Shown here piece by piece: positions 8,632 to 14,855 of a stretch of 62,422 nt of DNA (positions are counted from its first letter, which is position 1; each line of letters begins with the position of its first letter). The position numbers were made by a program, and so were the translations under genes. The notes beneath the pieces were generated by a model. That model did no database searches. It was not told the DNA's origin and saw only the letters and a list, made by a program, of their open reading frames with translations. The stretch is from Oscillatoriales cyanobacterium M59_W2019_021 (GTDB taxonomy: Bacteria; Cyanobacteriota; Cyanobacteriia; Cyanobacteriales; Geitlerinemataceae): contig DVED01000001.1 in assembly GCA_015295945.1 (NCBI GenBank), forward strand, positions 1-62,422, read 5' to 3'.

Positions 8632-11205
8632 GTGAAATTTTTCAAGTTTTTATTGTTGGCAATTACTTCTACTTTGTCGATCGTTTTTGGGGTTAGCCAT
8701 CTGGATGATTTACCCGGATTGGCATCGACACCGCATTCGATCGCAGAACAAGCAGCGGATCTAACGCAGCAGGGACACCAATATTTTGCCGTGGGAAATA
8801 TCGATGGGGCATTTCACGCTTGGCAAGACGCAGAAGAAAAGTATCGAGAAATTGGCAATGCGGAAGGAATAACAGGCAGTCGCCTCAACCAAAGTCTCGC
8901 GTTACAAGCCATGGGTCAGTCTCGTCGTGCCTGCAAAACTTTATTAACGACCTTAAATTTAGAAACGACTGAAAATAGTCCAGAATATTCCCCACTTTGC
9001 GAACCTCAAGCCCCAGAAACTATTGATTTTTCCCTGATTGATTTGTCTTCAATCAATACGATCGCCTTGCGAACTTTAGGAAATGTTTGGAGATCGATCG
9101 GAAACTTCAAGTTATCCCAACTTTCTTTAGAAAAAAGCTTAGAAATGGCTCGATTTTTGAACGATAGATCGGCGATTAATGCGGCACTATTGGGTTTGGG
9201 AAATACGGAGGAGGCATCCTACGAACGACTGCGAGATTTATTCAATCGAACGGGAAAATCGACCGATCGCAATCGAGCGATCGAGCGGGCCAAAGCCGCT
9301 CTTCATTTTTATCAGCAAGTGGGAGAAGGAGAAGCCGATCGAGCAAACCTAAATCGCTTGAATTTACTGTTAAAATCGGTCGCTTGGTTACAGGAAGAAG
9401 AGAGTGATAATACGGCAGACGCTGTGGCGATCGCCGGCAGGGCTTTGCAGTCTGAAATTTTACCTTTAGCAGAGAAAATTATTGCCAACAACGACCGGTT
9501 TTCTGATTTTCAACCCATCGATTTCATTTATGCAAATTTAACCTTAGCTCGCAGCTTCAGCCAAATTCACACTTCCCCTCAGTTAGAAGAAGTTGCCTTC
9601 CTTGCAGCTAATGAAGCTTACCAACACGCTCGACAATTGCCGGACAATTTTCGCGTTGAATCCGAAGCATTAGGAACGATCGGCTATCTTTACGAAGGCA
9701 CTGGAGAGTATGCAAAAGCTCGCGAATATACCCAGTCAGCCTTGAGTTTAGCGCGATCGAGTCGTGCGGAAGATCTAATTTCTCAATGGTCTTGGCAACT
9801 GGGACGAATTTACAAGAATCTTGAAAATATTGATGGATCGATCGCCGCCTATCAAATGGCAGTCAACAGTTTGGATGTCGTTCGCAAAGATTTATTAGCA
9901 ATTAATTCTGAGTCGCAATTCTCTTTTCGCGAAAATATTAAACCCGTCTACGAAGAATACCTCAATTTATTGCTGCAATCGCCACAACCCACTCAACATG
10001 AAATTAAACAAGCACTCGAAGTGAGCGATCGCTTCCAAACCGCAGAATTGGAAAATTTCTTAAAATGCAACTTATCCACCGATCGAAGCTTAGAAAACTC
10101 GAGTTTTAAAGTGTTAAAAAACTCAGCTAATAGCTCTACTAATTCATCAGTTGCCATTATCCGAGTTATCGTTCTCGAAAAGTTCGATCGGGCGATCGAG
10201 ATCGTTCAAAATTCTTCGTCGCATCCCGAGAGACTGCTCTATCGCCAACTTTCCGGGAAAGATTGGTTGGAATTACAGAGCAAAGTTAAAGCTTTGAAAA
10301 CAAAATTGGGTAATGAAGAATTCAGAACTGCCGATCCAGAGTCGATAAAAACTCAAACCCAAGCGATTTACCAATTTTTAATTGCTCCAATTCAGGACGA
10401 TTTACCGGAAAATGGAACCCTCGTTTTTCTCTTAGATAGCACCTTACAAAGCATTCCGATGTCAATTTTGCAAGATGAAAGCGGACGCTATCTCATCGAA
10501 CACTATCAAATCGCAGTGAGCTTTCCTACCTTCAATTTCAACGCTGCCGATCGTCAAAATAGATTGTCTGAAGTGTTAGCGGCGGGATTATCAGTCCGAG
10601 GTGCGAGTTTCGATCTCATTTCCCAACCCTTTCAACCCCTCGAATATGTCACCGCAGAACTCAATACAATCCGAGAAATTTCTCCATCGAGTTTAATTCT
10701 GGATGATGAAAAATTCACCACACAAAAATTTGAAAAATGGGTGCAGCAATCTAATTTACCGATCGTTCATATTGCCACCCACGGTCAATTTAGCTCGATT
10801 CCGGAAGAAACCTTTATTCTCGCGTACGATCGACCGATCGATGTCGATCGACTGGATGAAATCCTGCGCGATCGCACGGAAGGAACCCGAAAAAAAATTG
10901 AATTACTGGTCTTGAGTGCGTGTCAAACAGCAAAAGACGACAAACGGGGTGGTTTGGGTTTGGCAGGCGTTGCCATTCGTGCGGGTGCGGAAAGTACCGT
11001 TGCCAGTTTGTGGAATATCAGCGATCGATCGACCTCTGAATTTATGAAAGAATTTTATCGTGCTTTACAACAGCCAAATATTTCCCAATTGCAAGCTTTA
11101 CGTCAAGCACAGCTTCAATTTTTAACGAATTCAAAGTATATCGAATTAGAATACGATCACCCCTACCATTGGGCAGCATTTGTTTCCATTATCAACTCAA
11201 TTTAA
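8632..11205 (+). CDS. Exported TPR protein with C-terminal CHAT protease domain
   Basis: An 857-residue protein starting at GTG with GAGG about 12 bases upstream. Residues 1-30 form a signal peptide-like hydrophobic segment. Residues about 45-460 are TPR-like helical repeats. The C-terminal third is a CHAT (caspase-like clan CD) peptidase: the histidine motif HIATHG (His717) and the cysteine motif LSACQTA (Cys764) both retain the catalytic residues. CHAT domains cleave protein partners in bacterial signalling and defence. Its 3' end faces the kinase/NB-ARC operon with 56 bases between stops. The partner is unknown; export is inferred only from the N-terminus. Confidence 0.9.
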   Translation: MKFFKFLLLAITSTLSIVFGVSHLDDLPGLASTPHSIAEQAADLTQQGHQYFAVGNIDGAFHAWQDAEEKYREIGNAEGITGSRLNQSLALQAMGQSRRACKTLLTTLNLETTENSPEYSPLCEPQAPETIDFSLIDLSSINTIALRTLGNVWRSIGNFKLSQLSLEKSLEMARFLNDRSAINAALLGLGNTEEASYERLRDLFNRTGKSTDRNRAIERAKAALHFYQQVGEGEADRANLNRLNLLLKSVAWLQEEESDNTADAVAIAGRALQSEILPLAEKIIANNDRFSDFQPIDFIYANLTLARSFSQIHTSPQLEEVAFLAANEAYQHARQLPDNFRVESEALGTIGYLYEGTGEYAKAREYTQSALSLARSSRAEDLISQWSWQLGRIYKNLENIDGSIAAYQMAVNSLDVVRKDLLAINSESQFSFRENIKPVYEEYLNLLLQSPQPTQHEIKQALEVSDRFQTAELENFLKCNLSTDRSLENSSFKVLKNSANSSTNSSVAIIRVIVLEKFDRAIEIVQNSSSHPERLLYRQLSGKDWLELQSKVKALKTKLGNEEFRTADPESIKTQTQAIYQFLIAPIQDDLPENGTLVFLLDSTLQSIPMSILQDESGRYLIEHYQIAVSFPTFNFNAADRQNRLSEVLAAGLSVRGASFDLISQPFQPLEYVTAELNTIREISPSSLILDDEKFTTQKFEKWVQQSNLPIVHIATHGQFSSIPEETFILAYDRPIDVDRLDEILRDRTEGTRKKIELLVLSACQTAKDDKRGGLGLAGVAIRAGAESTVASLWNISDRSTSEFMKEFYRALQQPNISQLQALRQAQLQFLTNSKYIELEYDHPYHWAAFVSIINSI

Positions 11206-11223
11206 ACGCTATATTTTTCGTTT

Positions 11224-11252
11224 GAGGCAAAGTATAGATCGTACTTTGCCTC
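11224..11252. terminator. Symmetrical hairpin between convergent genes
   Basis: GAGGCAAAGT (11224-11233) pairs perfectly with ACTTTGCCTC (11243-11252). It sits between the converging CHAT gene and the small exported-protein gene. There is no strong T-run on either side, so it may be a weak bidirectional terminator or a 3' stabilising hairpin. Confidence 0.55.
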
Positions 11253-11261
11253 GATTGGATA

Positions 11262-11741
11262 TCAGTTGCTAGCGTCACTTTCAGGTTGACTCGAAATGGA
11301 AAACAGTCGTTCCGCTAAAATCGATTTTTCATCTACGATCGTTTCGATCGCCAGTCGATACTCCGTTCCCCAAGAAAGCGGTCGATCGAACCAATCCTGA
11401 AATTCGATCGAAATCGTACCATCCGAACTGACTTCTACTTCAGAAAGATCGATTGCGATCTCCTGTTCCGGTTCGGATTCCTCGAGATCTCGGACTCGAA
11501 GAATGTAAGATGTAGATCCCTGAACCGCAGACCACGATAGCGTTGGTGTTTGGGTATCTAATTCATCATTGGCAGTTGGACTGAGAATCTCAATCTCATT
11601 GTCGGGACTGCGAGGGTCATCGGGAACGCAACTATCTGGAGGGGTGCAATCTATCCCTTCAGCGATTGCAGGTTGTTGGGAATAAACAATTCCAGCGAAA
11701 ATTAAGACTCCGAGAAATGCAGTCAAAACGCGATCGGTCAT
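11262..11741 (-). CDS. Small exported protein with Fn3-like domain
   Basis: A 159-residue protein. Residues 1-28 are a Sec signal peptide (hydrophobic TAFLGVLIFAGIV, then QPAIAEG). Two Cys lie just after the cleavage region. Residues about 55-155 form an immunoglobulin/fibronectin-III-like module: TPTLSWSAVQGSTSYILRV is the classic strand B-C pattern. Its ATG overlaps the stop of the kinase gene by four bases (ATGA), so translation is probably coupled. It may be an extracytoplasmic partner of the kinase's TPR domain. No family name is recognised. Confidence 0.8.
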   Translation of the reverse strand: MTDRVLTAFLGVLIFAGIVYSQQPAIAEGIDCTPPDSCVPDDPRSPDNEIEILSPTANDELDTQTPTLSWSAVQGSTSYILRVRDLEESEPEQEIAIDLSEVEVSSDGTISIEFQDWFDRPLSWGTEYRLAIETIVDEKSILAERLFSISSQPESDASN

Positions 11742-13480
11742 GGTATTTTTTTAGCTTTCAGCAAGCGTTGTCGTGCCATTGTCTGCCAGGATAGGATTTC
11801 AACTCGATTTTTGGCATCGCCATCGCGACACAGTTGCCACTGTTGTAACGCTTCTATCGTTCGACCTTGAGACTCTCGTACCAGTGCCAACAAACAGTAA
11901 GCTTCGGTGCGGTCTTCTTGCCATTGAAGCGCCTCTTTTAAATTATCCTCTGCTTTGGCATAATCCGCCTGCATCCAGTACACCCAACCCAAATTTCTGT
12001 AAAGTGCCGATCGTACTTTGGGTTTCTGCGTTTGCTGCAATCCCTGTTCGCTCAGTTCGATCGCTCTATTTAAATCCCCTTGCAAGATCGACAAACGAGC
12101 TAAAGCACTTAAAGAATAATCGATCGTCTCGCCACCCAGTTCGATCGCCTGTTGGTACTGAATTCGAGCGCGATCGAATTCTTCCATCTGCTCGTAAATT
12201 TGTCCTAAGTTATAAAACGTTCCAGAATTTTGCTCGATTTTTAATGATTTAGAATAATAATTTTCCGCGCATTTAAAATCTTTTATTTTCTGGCAGACCA
12301 GACCTAAATTATTATAAGACTTATAATCATCGGGTTGATATTTTAAAGCTTTTTCGTAACTTTTACGGGCTAGATCTAACCGATTTTCTTGTTGTGCTGC
12401 TAAACCGCGTTGGTAATAATACTCCGCCTTTTCTGGAAAGGATAAACGGTTAACGATCGAGACCACAACTATCAAAGCCAATAAACTAGTTGCCAAAAAC
12501 TTAAACTCTCGAGATTGCAGAAAAAAACACAACTGCTTGAATTGATAGCGAATTTGTCTCAATCGCAAACGATGGGGATGCAAATCCGATAACATTTCCA
12601 TTGCATTTTGTGGTCGATTTCTCGGTAACTGAGCCATTAGCTCGTCAATAAAATCTGCCAACAGAGGAGAAATTTGGGTTGCCAAATGACGCCACTTTAA
12701 CTGACCGGTTGCCGAGTTGATCGGTAAATCTGTCGGGTGAGTTCCCGTCAGTAAATAGACAAACGTCCGTCCTAATGCAAAAAAGTCCGACTGGGGTAAT
12801 GCTTTCCCATCAATTTGTTCTTGCGGTGTATATCCACCGGAAATGACACTCGTAACTCGGTCTATATCAGTTTTCAAATTGTCCGTTCTTTTGAGTTTAG
12901 CAAGATAGGTATCCGTCAGTTCTCGCACCGCACCAAAGTCAATTAACACCAATTGACCGTCGGGTTTGCACATAATATTCGACGGCTTAATATCGCGGTG
13001 AAAAAAACCTTCTCGGTGGATGGCATCCAAAATTTCCAGCAACTGCCTCATCCACACCAATGCTTGTTTTTGCGAGATCTTACCGTGGAGTTTAACCCAC
13101 TTTTCTAAGTTCAGTCCCTCGATTTTTTCCATGACCAAACAATGGAGAACTCGGGAACGATTGGGAATAGATACGGAAAAGTATCCATCCAAATCAGATC
13201 GGGGAATTCCCGGATGGTTCATCCACTGCAAAATCCCGGCTTCGCGCTCGAAGCGATCGATCGCATCCGATCGATCGCTTTTCAAAATTTTCATCACTTT
13301 CCGCGTTCCGCGATCGTCCACCTCGAAAAGTTCGGTCGGCAGACGATCGTCTAACGGACGCAGAGACTTCAACAAGCGATACCGATTTTCAATGACAAGG
13401 GAGGTACCGCAGGCTTGACAAAATTCCGATTTCTCAGAATTTTGTCGGTGTTGGCACTCGGGGTTAATGCAGAAAATCAC
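11738..13480 (-). CDS. Membrane Ser/Thr protein kinase with zinc-ribbon and TPR domains
   Basis: A 580-residue protein. A four-Cys zinc ribbon (Cys4, Cys9, Cys22, Cys25) opens it. The kinase domain spans about 33-300 with Lys64 in VMKIL, HRDIKPSN at 161-168 (catalytic Asp163) and DFG at 181-183, so it looks active. One membrane segment lies at about 329-345. Residues about 352-580 are TPRs, expected outside the membrane. The kinase likely reads an envelope signal through the TPRs and phosphorylates cytoplasmic targets. It follows the NB-ARC gene by only 7 bases and overlaps the next gene, so it is in one operon. Confidence 0.92.
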   Translation of the reverse strand: MIFCINPECQHRQNSEKSEFCQACGTSLVIENRYRLLKSLRPLDDRLPTELFEVDDRGTRKVMKILKSDRSDAIDRFEREAGILQWMNHPGIPRSDLDGYFSVSIPNRSRVLHCLVMEKIEGLNLEKWVKLHGKISQKQALVWMRQLLEILDAIHREGFFHRDIKPSNIMCKPDGQLVLIDFGAVRELTDTYLAKLKRTDNLKTDIDRVTSVISGGYTPQEQIDGKALPQSDFFALGRTFVYLLTGTHPTDLPINSATGQLKWRHLATQISPLLADFIDELMAQLPRNRPQNAMEMLSDLHPHRLRLRQIRYQFKQLCFFLQSREFKFLATSLLALIVVVSIVNRLSFPEKAEYYYQRGLAAQQENRLDLARKSYEKALKYQPDDYKSYNNLGLVCQKIKDFKCAENYYSKSLKIEQNSGTFYNLGQIYEQMEEFDRARIQYQQAIELGGETIDYSLSALARLSILQGDLNRAIELSEQGLQQTQKPKVRSALYRNLGWVYWMQADYAKAEDNLKEALQWQEDRTEAYCLLALVRESQGRTIEALQQWQLCRDGDAKNRVEILSWQTMARQRLLKAKKIP

Positions 13481-13487
13481 ATACTAT

Positions 13488-14855
13488 CTAGACCTCGTTA
13501 AGTTGGTATTTTTTCACGTATTTCTTGAGAAACTTGGGTAGTTCGTACAAGGTTTCCGATGACTTGGGATTCTTAGAAAATACGATCCAATCGCGATTTT
13601 TCAGCGAAACCAATTCTTCCAAAATTTGAGAGGTCGAACCAACCTCAGCAATACCATCTTTGAGGTTGATAAACGAAACTGACTTCGATTGCTCGGCTAA
13701 GTAGCAGGCAATTTTCTTCTCCAGATCGCTAAATTTCTGGAATTGACGATCCAAAACTTCCAAAAATTCTCCGTAGAAGAAGCTCCAGGTTTTCGTCTGA
13801 TCGCGACCGATCGCCGATAAAAATTCAGCCACATTTCCTTGAAACAACTCGGCAATACTCGTGGCTTCAATTTGCAGCAAGAATGGGTTTCCCCCTGCCG
13901 CGCGAATCAGATCGTCCCATTTGTCTTCCCCGGTTAACTCGCGATCTTGGAAGATTTTCCGCGCTTCTTCCACCGGAAGTCCGTGCAACGCTAAAGAGCG
14001 AGTGGTTTTGGTTGATCGCGCTAGCGCCTCAATTTCTTTAAAGGTTTGGTCGGACGCGATTAACAAACAACTTTTATGCTCGAATTGACCGATTTGTCGG
14101 AGCAGTTTCCCATACGCTTCGTACCCTTCAAGGTACGGTTGCAGGCGATTGCCACTTTTAAGAACGGCATCGAAACTATCGAGAACCAGCAAGCATTTCG
14201 ACTCTTGCAACCGCTCGACCAACTGAGCGATTTGGCTGTCGATATCGGTTTTAGACGGATCGATCGGCGCGCAACCCAAAGATTCCAACAAATCTGCCAG
14301 TAACGTTTCTGGAGGGGGAACGTGACGCAGCGATCGCCAAATCAGCCGATCGAATTTCTCCTCTTCCTGAATTCTTTCCGCCAGCTTTTTCGCCAGTGCG
14401 GTTTTACCGATTCCACCCAAACCCACCAGCGCCACCAAGCGGCAATGTTCCTCAACAATCCACTGGTACAGTTCGTTCAATTCTGTCTCGCGTCCGTAAA
14501 ACGTGGGAACGTCCGGCGCTTCTCCCCAATCCCAACGCGGACGATCGCGCCGGGGACGCTTGGCAACGCCGGCAAACCCCACATTCCCAACTTGTTGTTC
14601 TTGAAAGCGGGACTGCAATTGCTGCTGGAGTTTTGCCAGCTTCACCGGACCTTTGCCGCCGATCTCAAATTTCTGATAAACTTGACTGAGGCGCTGGCGG
14701 ATCGCTTCCGGTCGAACTTGCAGCTTGTCAGCGATCGTGGTGATATCGTCGCCGCTCAAAGCTCGCAAAAAGGCTTCTCGCTCCGCACGAGAGAGATTGC
14801 GGAGGTCGGCTTCCGCTCGGAGAAAGGCTTGGTACTGAGAATCCGTTAGCAACAT
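13488..14855 (-). CDS. STAND ATPase: HTH domain plus NB-ARC domain
   Basis: A 455-residue protein. Residues about 1-85 form a helix-turn-helix region of the type found at the N-terminus of vWA-MoxR-associated proteins (TIADKLQVRPEAIRQRLSQVY). The NB-ARC part follows: FYGRETEL at 119-126, P-loop GLGGIGKT at 145-152, Walker B LLVLDSFDAV near 222-231, and the GxP motif GGNPFLL near 321. A short winged-helix-like tail ends it, with no WD40 or TPR sensor array, so it is a minimal STAND protein. It heads a three-gene operon with the kinase and the exported protein. STAND proteins act as signal-triggered oligomerising switches; the trigger is unknown. Confidence 0.9.
   Translation of the reverse strand: MLLTDSQYQAFLRAEADLRNLSRAEREAFLRALSGDDITTIADKLQVRPEAIRQRLSQVYQKFEIGGKGPVKLAKLQQQLQSRFQEQQVGNVGFAGVAKRPRRDRPRWDWGEAPDVPTFYGRETELNELYQWIVEEHCRLVALVGLGGIGKTALAKKLAERIQEEEKFDRLIWRSLRHVPPPETLLADLLESLGCAPIDPSKTDIDSQIAQLVERLQESKCLLVLDSFDAVLKSGNRLQPYLEGYEAYGKLLRQIGQFEHKSCLLIASDQTFKEIEALARSTKTTRSLALHGLPVEEARKIFQDRELTGEDKWDDLIRAAGGNPFLLQIEATSIAELFQGNVAEFLSAIGRDQTKTWSFFYGEFLEVLDRQFQKFSDLEKKIACYLAEQSKSVSFINLKDGIAEVGSTSQILEELVSLKNRDWIVFSKNPKSSETLYELPKFLKKYVKKYQLNEV

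What the first reader, a model, noticed from the sequence alone, without database searches (positions are those of the whole stretch)
8632..14855. CHAT protease, STAND ATPase, membrane kinase and exported Fn3-like protein in one island
Three adjacent minus-strand genes (HTH-NB-ARC ATPase, zinc-ribbon/kinase/TM/TPR, exported Fn3-like protein) are spaced 7 bases apart or overlap, so they form an operon. A secreted-looking CHAT-TPR protein with intact His717/Cys764 faces them 56 bases away. NB-ARC, Ser/Thr kinase and CHAT domains are each known parts of prokaryotic conflict and programmed-death networks. That they form one system is inference. The STAND protein is unusual in lacking a sensor repeat array; the kinase TPRs or the exported protein could be the sensor.
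Basis: partly seen in the sequence, partly recalled or inferred. Interest (0 to 1): 0.6.

Follow-up and report, generated by a model that had tools for sequence, protein, structure and literature searches.

The report
Four-gene envelope signalling and protease module
Four neighbouring cyanobacterial genes, a switch ATPase, a membrane kinase, an exported adhesion-like protein and an exported caspase-like protease, turn out to be one conserved module, which many cyanobacterial plasmids carry right beside their replication gene.

Summary
In detail: HTH-STAND ATPase, 4-Cys kinase/TM/TPR and an exported Fn3 protein form a tight minus-strand operon; a signal-peptide TPR-CHAT protease converges tail-to-tail on it across a strong hairpin.

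The inference that they form one system was tested. In 27 loci picked only for a full-length relative of the kinase, STAND is adjacent in 27/27, the Fn3 gene follows in 24/25 and CHAT lies within 5 kb in 20/20 with enough sequence (19 convergent). In 53 partly matching kinase loci these are rare (6/48, 0/49, 1/46). Catalytic residues are invariant (CHAT Cys 56/56, kinase Asp 67/67).

Unexpectedly, 44 plasmid records carry the kinase, 43 with the Fn3 gene within 4 kb; 32 of 36 larger plasmids with a close CyRepA1 replication protein carry it 2-5 kb from rep.

Two separable halves exist: cytoplasmic STAND-kinase and exported Fn3-CHAT, often with a TPS exoprotein; the exported half also adjoins DUF1822/CHAT-CHASE2 genes like published EACC2 systems. 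Best mechanism (moderate confidence): an outside-in relay from an exported protease/Fn3 arm through the kinase to an HTH-STAND regulator. A conflict or death role is untested. New variant of a known kind.

The parts
8632..11205 (+). Exported TPR-CHAT (caspase-like) protease; dyad His717/Cys764
   Evidence: PF12770 E 4e-55; H717, C764 and hydrophobic N-terminus 1-24; Cys 56/56 and His 55/55 (one gap) in module CHATs
11222..11254 (.). Hairpin (14-bp stem, 5-nt loop) between the two 3' ends; likely bidirectional terminator
   Evidence: fold z -4.8; terminator function inferred
11262..11741 (-). Exported Fn3-domain protein; minimal form of a FecR-like + Fn3 + TPR family
   Evidence: AlphaFold/Foldseek Fn3; family alignments; long relative modelled; 'FecR-like' is my reading, no Pfam match
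11738..13480 (-). 4-Cys zinc-ribbon Ser/Thr kinase, single TM (324-349), C-terminal TPR part
   Evidence: K64, D163, D181 67/67
13488..14855 (-). HTH-STAND (NB-ARC/NACHT) ATPase without sensor repeats
   Evidence: Walker A Lys and Walker B Asp 66/66, one gap

Best explanation
The four genes are one trans-envelope module. SHOWN: conserved gene set, mostly in the same order; conserved catalytic residues in protease, kinase and ATPase; signal-like N-termini on most Fn3 and CHAT proteins; a kinase with one predicted TM between kinase domain and TPRs; an HTH on at least one close STAND relative that aligns with the window STAND. INFERRED: the TPRs lie outside the cytoplasm; the exported arm (Fn3 protein with CHAT protease, in many loci with a two-partner-secretion exoprotein) senses an event at the cell surface or in the periplasm, by binding and/or CHAT cleavage; the TPR ectodomain of the kinase reads the state of that arm; the kinase domain phosphorylates the HTH-STAND protein, which has no sensor repeats of its own; nucleotide-driven STAND assembly then switches transcription of the operon and of neighbours (on plasmids the replication gene lies just upstream). 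In this view the kinase is the missing sensor of the STAND protein. That the genes are one module I hold at about 0.93; the direction and steps of the relay at about 0.4.
For: Kinase-selected loci: STAND 27/27, Fn3 24/25, CHAT 20/20 against 6/48, 0/49, 1/46 (the first Fn3 profile, made before these loci were seen, gives the same 24 and 0); the 27 fall into 12 kinase clusters at 70% identity. Plasmids: Fn3 gene within 4 kb of the kinase in 43 of 44 records; STAND, Fn3 and CHAT found in all 30 stretches read. Exported arm: hydrophobic N-terminus in 57/62 Fn3 and 45/56 CHAT proteins, TM in 63/67 kinases, against 6/67 N-termini of STANDs. CHAT is fused to a TPS secretion domain in L109 and L259. 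HTH: GerE in L225 STAND. Across 23 plasmids, STAND ATPase identity tracks the kinase domain (Pearson 0.88) more than the TPR part (0.59), and Fn3 tracks the TPR part (0.71) more than the kinase domain (0.40), as an inside/outside division would give.
Against: No biochemistry, expression or phenotype. The tracking pattern also follows from gene order with recombination inside the kinase gene. STAND-kinase pairs without a following Fn3/DUF928 gene (15 of 23) and Fn3 or DUF928 beside CHAT without STAND-kinase (9 of the 20 regions) show that neither half needs the other. STAND N-termini differ: of the two relatives scanned, L225 matches an HTH family and L226 does not. 11 of 56 CHATs and 5 of 62 Fn3 proteins lack the N-terminal hydrophobic stretch by my rule (some starts may be wrong). 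HTH-STAND could also be upstream (cytosolic sensing) with the protease as output.
Confidence: 0.45

Rival explanations
1. Inside-out death or defence module: the STAND protein senses an invader in the cytosol, the kinase carries the signal outward, and the exported CHAT protease damages the envelope (abortive infection).
For: Caspase-like peptidases, STAND ATPases and kinases are parts of predicted conflict systems (PMC8195603 section 9, read; passages of PMC10907252 and of PMC7159879); kinase hits a PD-T4-6 model at 7e-104; patchy distribution and low GC3 of CHAT, Fn3 and kinase (0.39-0.44; 12 of 15 other window ORFs tested lie at 0.53-0.73, but three are as low and STAND is 0.55).
Against: STAND lacks a repeat sensor and seems to carry an HTH in place of an effector; the PD-T4-6 match covers only the zinc ribbon and kinase part; CHAT and Fn3 look exported; STAND, CHAT and Fn3 match no defence family beyond weak ATPase or TPR hits.
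Confidence: 0.2
2. Plasmid maintenance, exclusion or identity device: in Nostocales and Acaryochloris the module is a backbone element of CyRepA1 plasmids, acting on plasmid replication, entry or retention; the window copy is a relative outside such a plasmid.
For: Of the 41 listed plasmids with CyRepA1 at 63% or more to the query, 32 carry it 2.2-4.8 kb from rep; 32 of the 36 of 60 kb or more. CyRepA1 lies in 27 of the 30 stretches read; in L352 it lies across the record start; it is absent from the stretches of L342 and L350. FinO-like gene between rep and STAND in L333, L338, L339, L343. Co-resident plasmids carry unlike modules (STAND mean identity 0.41) though their CyRepA1 are 0.915 alike.
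Against: No CyRepA1 match in this genome (the tool says an empty answer shows nothing). The integrase on the other side of rep is also unlike between co-resident plasmids (0.21-0.35, 3 pairs), so the module is not special in this. Co-residence of like modules is not rarer than elsewhere: 1 of 15 same-strain pairs against 14 of 310 between strains at kinase identity 0.75 or more. A 6.9-Mb scaffold carries it too (L228).
Confidence: 0.2
3. Two unrelated neighbours: a STAND-kinase pair and an Fn3-CHAT pair that happen to adjoin in the window.
For: Each half occurs without the other; STAND ATPase and Fn3 identities go together weakly across 23 plasmids (Spearman 0.01, Pearson 0.35).
Against: Joined set kept in 20/20 testable full-length-kinase loci and in plasmids of three orders (Nostocales, Acaryochloridales, Leptolyngbyales); full-length STAND and Fn3 distances over 26 plasmids do correlate (Mantel 0.53, p 0.001).
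Confidence: 0.06

Closest known systems
EACC2-caspase systems with DUF1822 and ECF sigma factor (Kaur et al. 2021, PMC8195603; section 9 read whole, other passages seen)
   Same: Predicted caspase-like sensing systems with a transcriptional output; genes like them (CHAT-CHASE2 in L310 and L314, CHAT-TPR in L320 and L322, DUF1822 in L310 and L322) stand upstream of the same exported Fn3 or a DUF928 gene
   Different: Window has no CHAT-CHASE2 or similar fusion, no DUF1822, no sigma factor next to it; membrane sensor is a kinase-TM-TPR, cytoplasmic partner an HTH-STAND; CHAT is exported. The EACC2 domain itself was not searched for
STAND transcription regulators with HTH (MalT, AfsR type; recalled)
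   Same: HTH plus STAND ATPase; AfsR is also kinase-controlled (recalled)
   Different: HTH is N-terminal, no TPR/WD sensor array; sensor seems supplied by a transmembrane kinase encoded next door
MtxA (PDB 4z29; PMC4439547, abstract and outline read)
   Same: Top fold match of the long Fn3 relative L226 (E 1.8e-6): Ig-like plus TPR; gene in an operon with putative signal-transduction genes
   Different: MtxA belongs to magnetotactic bacteria; the window copy keeps only the Fn3 domain
HetF, CHAT protein of Anabaena (PMC8406250, seen in search listings with the start of the abstract; its CHAT domain recalled)
   Same: Cyanobacterial CHAT protein
   Different: Divisome/heterocyst role; not compared by sequence here
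CyRepA1 plasmids (PMC10899382, abstract and passages seen)
   Same: Replication protein beside which the module sits on many plasmids
   Different: The held main text of that paper has 0 occurrences of kinase, NB-ARC or CHAT

Membership tests
CHAT peptidase (PF12770) | CHAT domain with His/Cys dyad | tested here: met
   (4e-55); H717/C764; conserved 55/55 and 56/56; activity not testable
STAND ATPase (NB-ARC/NACHT) | Walker A/B and STAND-type domain above curated cut-off | tested here: met
   Walker Lys and Asp 66/66
Anti-phage STAND (Avs/bNACHT type; features recalled) | C-terminal sensor repeats and N-terminal effector domain | tested here: not met
   455 aa with no repeat family matched, N-terminus HTH-like; PADLOC best 3.4e-5
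HTH-STAND transcription regulator | HTH domain | tested here: inconclusive
   P0004 alone GerE E 0.11; aligned region of L225 STAND GerE 9.5e-10; DNA binding not tested
EACC2-caspase system | EACC2-caspase fusion with variable C-terminus; DUF1822, ECF sigma in most | tested here: not met
   CHAT protein is signal peptide-TPR-CHAT; no DUF1822, sigma or CHASE2 among P0001-P0007; EACC2 domain itself not searched
VMAP ternary conflict system | MoxR ATPase, vWA protein, VMAP | tested here: not met
   None among the seven proteins P0001-P0007 scanned; the rest of the window was not scanned
PD-T4-6 defence kinase | Match to PADLOC models and anti-phage activity | tested here: inconclusive
   7e-104 over residues 2-331, i.e. 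zinc ribbon and kinase part only; activity untested
FecR-Fn3-TPR exported protein family found here | Fn3 core; FecR-like N-part and TPR C-part in long members | tested here: met
   Fn3 core met; FecR-like and TPR parts absent from P0002, present in relatives
DUF928 (PF06051) | Pfam match | tested here: not met
   P0002 no match; one relative, L118, below cut-off at E 0.0022; profile comparison of the Fn3 family with DUF928 E 0.058, probability 0.95%
CyRepA1 plasmid backbone | CyRepA1 within 10 kb | tested here: not met
   none in this genome with the query used (weak, as the tool notes)

The most novel reading that the evidence does not exclude
Large plasmids of multicellular cyanobacteria each carry their own envelope-spanning recognition set (surface exoprotein, exported Fn3 protein, exported caspase-like protease, transmembrane kinase, HTH-STAND switch) beside the replication gene and use it to tell kin from foreign at the cell surface, and to set replication, plasmid exclusion or host death accordingly; the copy in the window is a domesticated or ancestral form.
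Probability: 0.17. Interest if true: 0.9.

Novelty: new variant of a known kind. Interest (0 to 1): 0.66.

Why it matters
It joins parts usually listed apart in cyanobacterial genomes (CHAT proteases, NB-ARC proteins, 4-Cys kinases, DUF928/Fn3 and haemagglutinin-like exoproteins) into one testable signalling chain across the envelope, suggests how a STAND protein without sensor repeats could be controlled, and points to a backbone element of cyanobacterial plasmids that I did not find described. Trichormus variabilis ATCC 29413 carries it on plasmid A, so its role can be tested directly.

Tried and rejected
Chance neighbours: rejected by kinase-selected sampling with partly matching kinase loci as control. 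The control group holds two contig-cut loci that look like module members (L249, L257); they were left in it. Membership in anti-phage STAND, VMAP or EACC2 systems: rejected on architecture. Homology of the Fn3 protein with DUF928: not shown; DUF928 seems an alternative in the same slot (L107, L249).

Co-evolution of Fn3 with the TPR part of CHAT rather than its protease part: not supported when the same 23 plasmids are used (bootstrap 0.70 by rank, 0.32 by Pearson); the difference came from unlike pair sets. Selection for unlike modules in one cell: not supported; within-strain identity equals between-strain identity for STAND, KIN, FN, CHAT and TPS (permutation p 0.26-0.74), and the flanking integrase behaves alike (3 pairs).

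The short-STAND against WD40-type STAND comparison (23 of 84 against 0 of 28, Fisher 8e-4) includes two loci (L189, L191) fetched for their kinase; without them it is 21 of 82. Dropped before counts: loci cut by contig ends where noted; L325, L340, L353 (split or broken CHAT) and the four non-Nostocales or non-CyRepA1 plasmids L342, L348, L349, L350; the latter four also in the Nostocales counts. One search missed one row (NZ_CP043057, 96 kb, no module) and so gave 32 of 35 and 32 of 40; one search recounts 32 of 36 and 32 of 41, used here.

Literature: searches found no description of this four-gene set; the library lacks most subscription papers and all preprints.
Full report
What is there. 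The four ORFs are at the stated places. STAND (13488-14855), kinase (11738-13480) and Fn3 protein (11262-11741) are on the minus strand with a 7-base gap and a 4-base overlap; the CHAT gene (8632-11205, plus strand) ends 56 bases from the end of the Fn3 gene, and a hairpin with a 14-bp stem lies between. Pfam and NCBIfam place CHAT, protein kinase with 4-Cys prefix and TPRs, and NB-ARC/NACHT ATPase above their cut-offs. P0002 matches nothing in Pfam; folded with 14 relatives (mean pLDDT 68.8, mostly 70-89 per ten-residue block from residue 61 to 150) its best PDB matches are Fn3 domains or monobodies (best E 1.5e-4). CHAT and Fn3 proteins have hydrophobic N-termini, the kinase one TM at 324-349, the STAND none.

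Is it one system? Within this genome neighbourhood alone says little: it has 39 CHAT matches and 60 matches to the kinase or its TPRs. I therefore chose loci by the kinase alone. In the 27: STAND adjacent in 27 (15 co-directional, 12 divergent), Fn3 gene in 24 of 25 with room (the exception is L228), CHAT within 5 kb in 20 of 20 with room (19 convergent, 1 co-directional), TPS exoprotein within 8 kb in 15 of 27. In the 53: STAND 6 of 48, Fn3 0 of 49 (one DUF928), CHAT 1 of 46 (Fisher p 6e-15, 1e-18, 5e-16, which ignores kinship). The first Fn3 profile, made before these loci were seen, gives the same 24 and 0. The 27 fall into 12 kinase clusters at 70% identity; most are Nostoc, with Desmonostoc, Komarekiella, Planktothricoides, Oscillatoria, and Nostocaceae and Microcoleaceae MAGs. 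In STAND-selected loci from the own and related genomes the picture is looser: a kinase follows directly in 23 of 84 short STANDs with room (21 of 82 without two loci fetched for their kinase) and in 0 of 28 WD40-size STANDs; of these 23, an Fn3 or DUF928 gene is the next gene in 8 and CHAT lies within three genes in 6. So STAND-kinase is a core of its own and the complete set marks the subfamily nearest to the window.

The exported half. Among 20 regions fetched for CHAT or Fn3 hits, nine have Fn3 or DUF928 beside or within 1 kb of CHAT without STAND-kinase (L304, L305, L306, L310, L314, L319, L321, L322, L323), six of them with a TPS exoprotein. Upstream of the Fn3/DUF928 gene stand, instead of STAND-kinase, DUF1822 with a CHAT-CHASE2 or CHAT-TPR protein (L310, L322; in L314 and L320 only the CHAT fusion was scanned, and L320 has no CHAT beside its Fn3 gene), a set like the EACC2 systems with DUF1822 and ECF sigma of Kaur et al. 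2021 (PMC8195603 section 9), or a TPR protein (L304, L305, L323). CHAT is fused to a TPS secretion domain in L109 and L259. Thus one exported arm seems to be coupled to different inner halves; that paper's held main text has no 'hemagglutinin' or 'two-partner'.

The Fn3 family. Long members have a beta domain that I read as FecR-like (no Pfam match), an Fn3 domain and TPRs; the model of the L226 protein has pLDDT 80, top match the MtxA C-terminal domain, Ig-like plus TPR (4z29, E 1.8e-6; PMC4439547, abstract). The window copy keeps the Fn3 domain only.

Conserved chemistry. Over window, genome and plasmid members: CHAT Cys 56/56 and His 55/55 (one gap); kinase K64, E80, D163, K165, N168, D181, G183 67/67; STAND Walker A Lys and Walker B Asp 66/66 (one gap); the four prefix Cys 65/65, 65/65, 65/66 and 65/66 of those with letters. 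P0004 aligns with L225 STAND through its N-terminus, where L225 has a GerE HTH; L226 STAND shows none.

Plasmids. P0003 against PLSDB at E 1e-60 or better: 44 records, 45 places (Nostoc 28, Leptolyngbya 6, Acaryochloris 5, Trichormus 2, Halotia, Fischerella, Nodularia; some near-duplicate strains, e.g. six Leptolyngbya boryana records). The Fn3 gene is within 4 kb in 43 of 44. The CyRepA1 search found 133 records and listed the best 60; 41 of these have identity 63% or more, and 32 of the 41, or 32 of the 36 of at least 60 kb, carry the module 2.2-4.8 kb from rep. Thirty stretches were read: STAND, kinase, Fn3 and CHAT in 30, TPS in 28, ShlB in 12, CyRepA1 in 27; a FinO-like gene between rep and STAND in L333, L338, L339, L343; sigma-70 there in Acaryochloris L348, L349; in Fischerella L342 an insert parts Fn3 from the kinase. 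Among 26 Nostocales plasmids mean pairwise identity is 0.77 for CyRepA1 (25), 0.56 kinase, 0.52 CHAT, 0.44 TPS (25), 0.43 STAND, 0.41 Fn3. Same-strain pairs: CyRepA1 0.915 (13) against 0.76 (287) between strains (p 0.0005), but no difference for any module gene. The same module allele recurs in different strains (L330, L351, L352: 95-100%). The one strain among those read with two near-identical modules, UHCC 0870, has one copy with a shortened Fn3 gene (201 aa), shortened CHAT and an interrupted ShlB. The integrase across rep also differs between co-resident plasmids (3 pairs), so what is special is the likeness of rep, not the unlikeness of the module.

Two halves. Over 23 plasmids STAND ATPase and kinase-domain identities go together (Pearson 0.88), Fn3 and CHAT go together (0.92), STAND and Fn3 little (Pearson 0.35, Spearman 0.01); the kinase TPR part sits between. 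Full-length distances over 26 plasmids still correlate between STAND and Fn3 (Mantel 0.53, p 0.001), and weakly with CyRepA1 (0.17-0.29, p 0.001-0.053). Recombination within the kinase gene explains this as well as function does. Fn3 and CHAT ORFs overlap by exactly 40 nt in 20 of 30 plasmids.

Mechanism. I commit to an outside-in relay: exported Fn3/CHAT arm, kinase ectodomain, kinase domain, HTH-STAND, transcription. Shown are gene set, topology-relevant features and conserved active sites; direction, substrates and output are inference. Rivals are an inside-out death module and a plasmid device. None has been tested by experiment.

Origin of the window copy. No CyRepA1 was found in this genome (an empty answer that the tool itself marks as showing nothing); the Fn3 gene has no second match; the best STAND relatives in the same family score lower than those in other families, which fits lateral gain.

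Noticed in passing
L324-L353 (plasmid regions): CyRepA1 proteins of plasmids living in one strain are 82-96% alike while flanks on both sides are mostly not; in the ten pairs looked at, DNA likeness ends about 0.4-1 kb before STAND or is far lower beyond it, except in UHCC 0870. Suggests gene conversion of rep among co-resident plasmids, and bears on how like replicons coexist.
   Followed up: partly
L327, L329-L335, L337-L340, L343-L347, L350-L352: Fn3 and CHAT ORFs overlap tail-to-tail by exactly 40 nt in 20 of 30 plasmids; by eye the Fn3 stop codon lies opposite the YYW/YFW near the CHAT C-terminus.
   Followed up: partly
L353 against L335: Nostoc sp. UHCC 0870 has two plasmids with near-identical kinase/Fn3/CHAT but unlike STAND (0.48), one copy decayed.
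   Followed up: no
L107, L249: DUF928 stands in the Fn3 slot between kinase and convergent CHAT.
   Followed up: partly
L109, L259: CHAT fused to a TPS secretion domain (1528 and 1590 aa).
   Followed up: partly
L304, L305, L323: TPR protein with an HTH-like N-terminus (by eye) upstream of or near Fn3 beside CHAT, a third kind of inner half.
   Followed up: no
L333, L338, L339, L343: FinO-like 'fertility inhibition' gene between CyRepA1 and STAND (annotation).
   Followed up: no
window 11222-11254: Strong symmetric hairpin between the convergent 3' ends.
   Followed up: partly
G000 (own genome): 39 matches to the CHAT family; of the seven other CHAT regions looked at, three have a TPS gene near by (L313, L314, L315) and two a DUF928 gene (L314, L319).
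   Followed up: partly
L189:2463-2744: Behind the closest full-length kinase relative (53% identical) only a 93-aa ORF with a signal-like start and a Cys-rich stretch recalling P0002 is open; the CHAT gene is not seen in the stretch.
   Followed up: no
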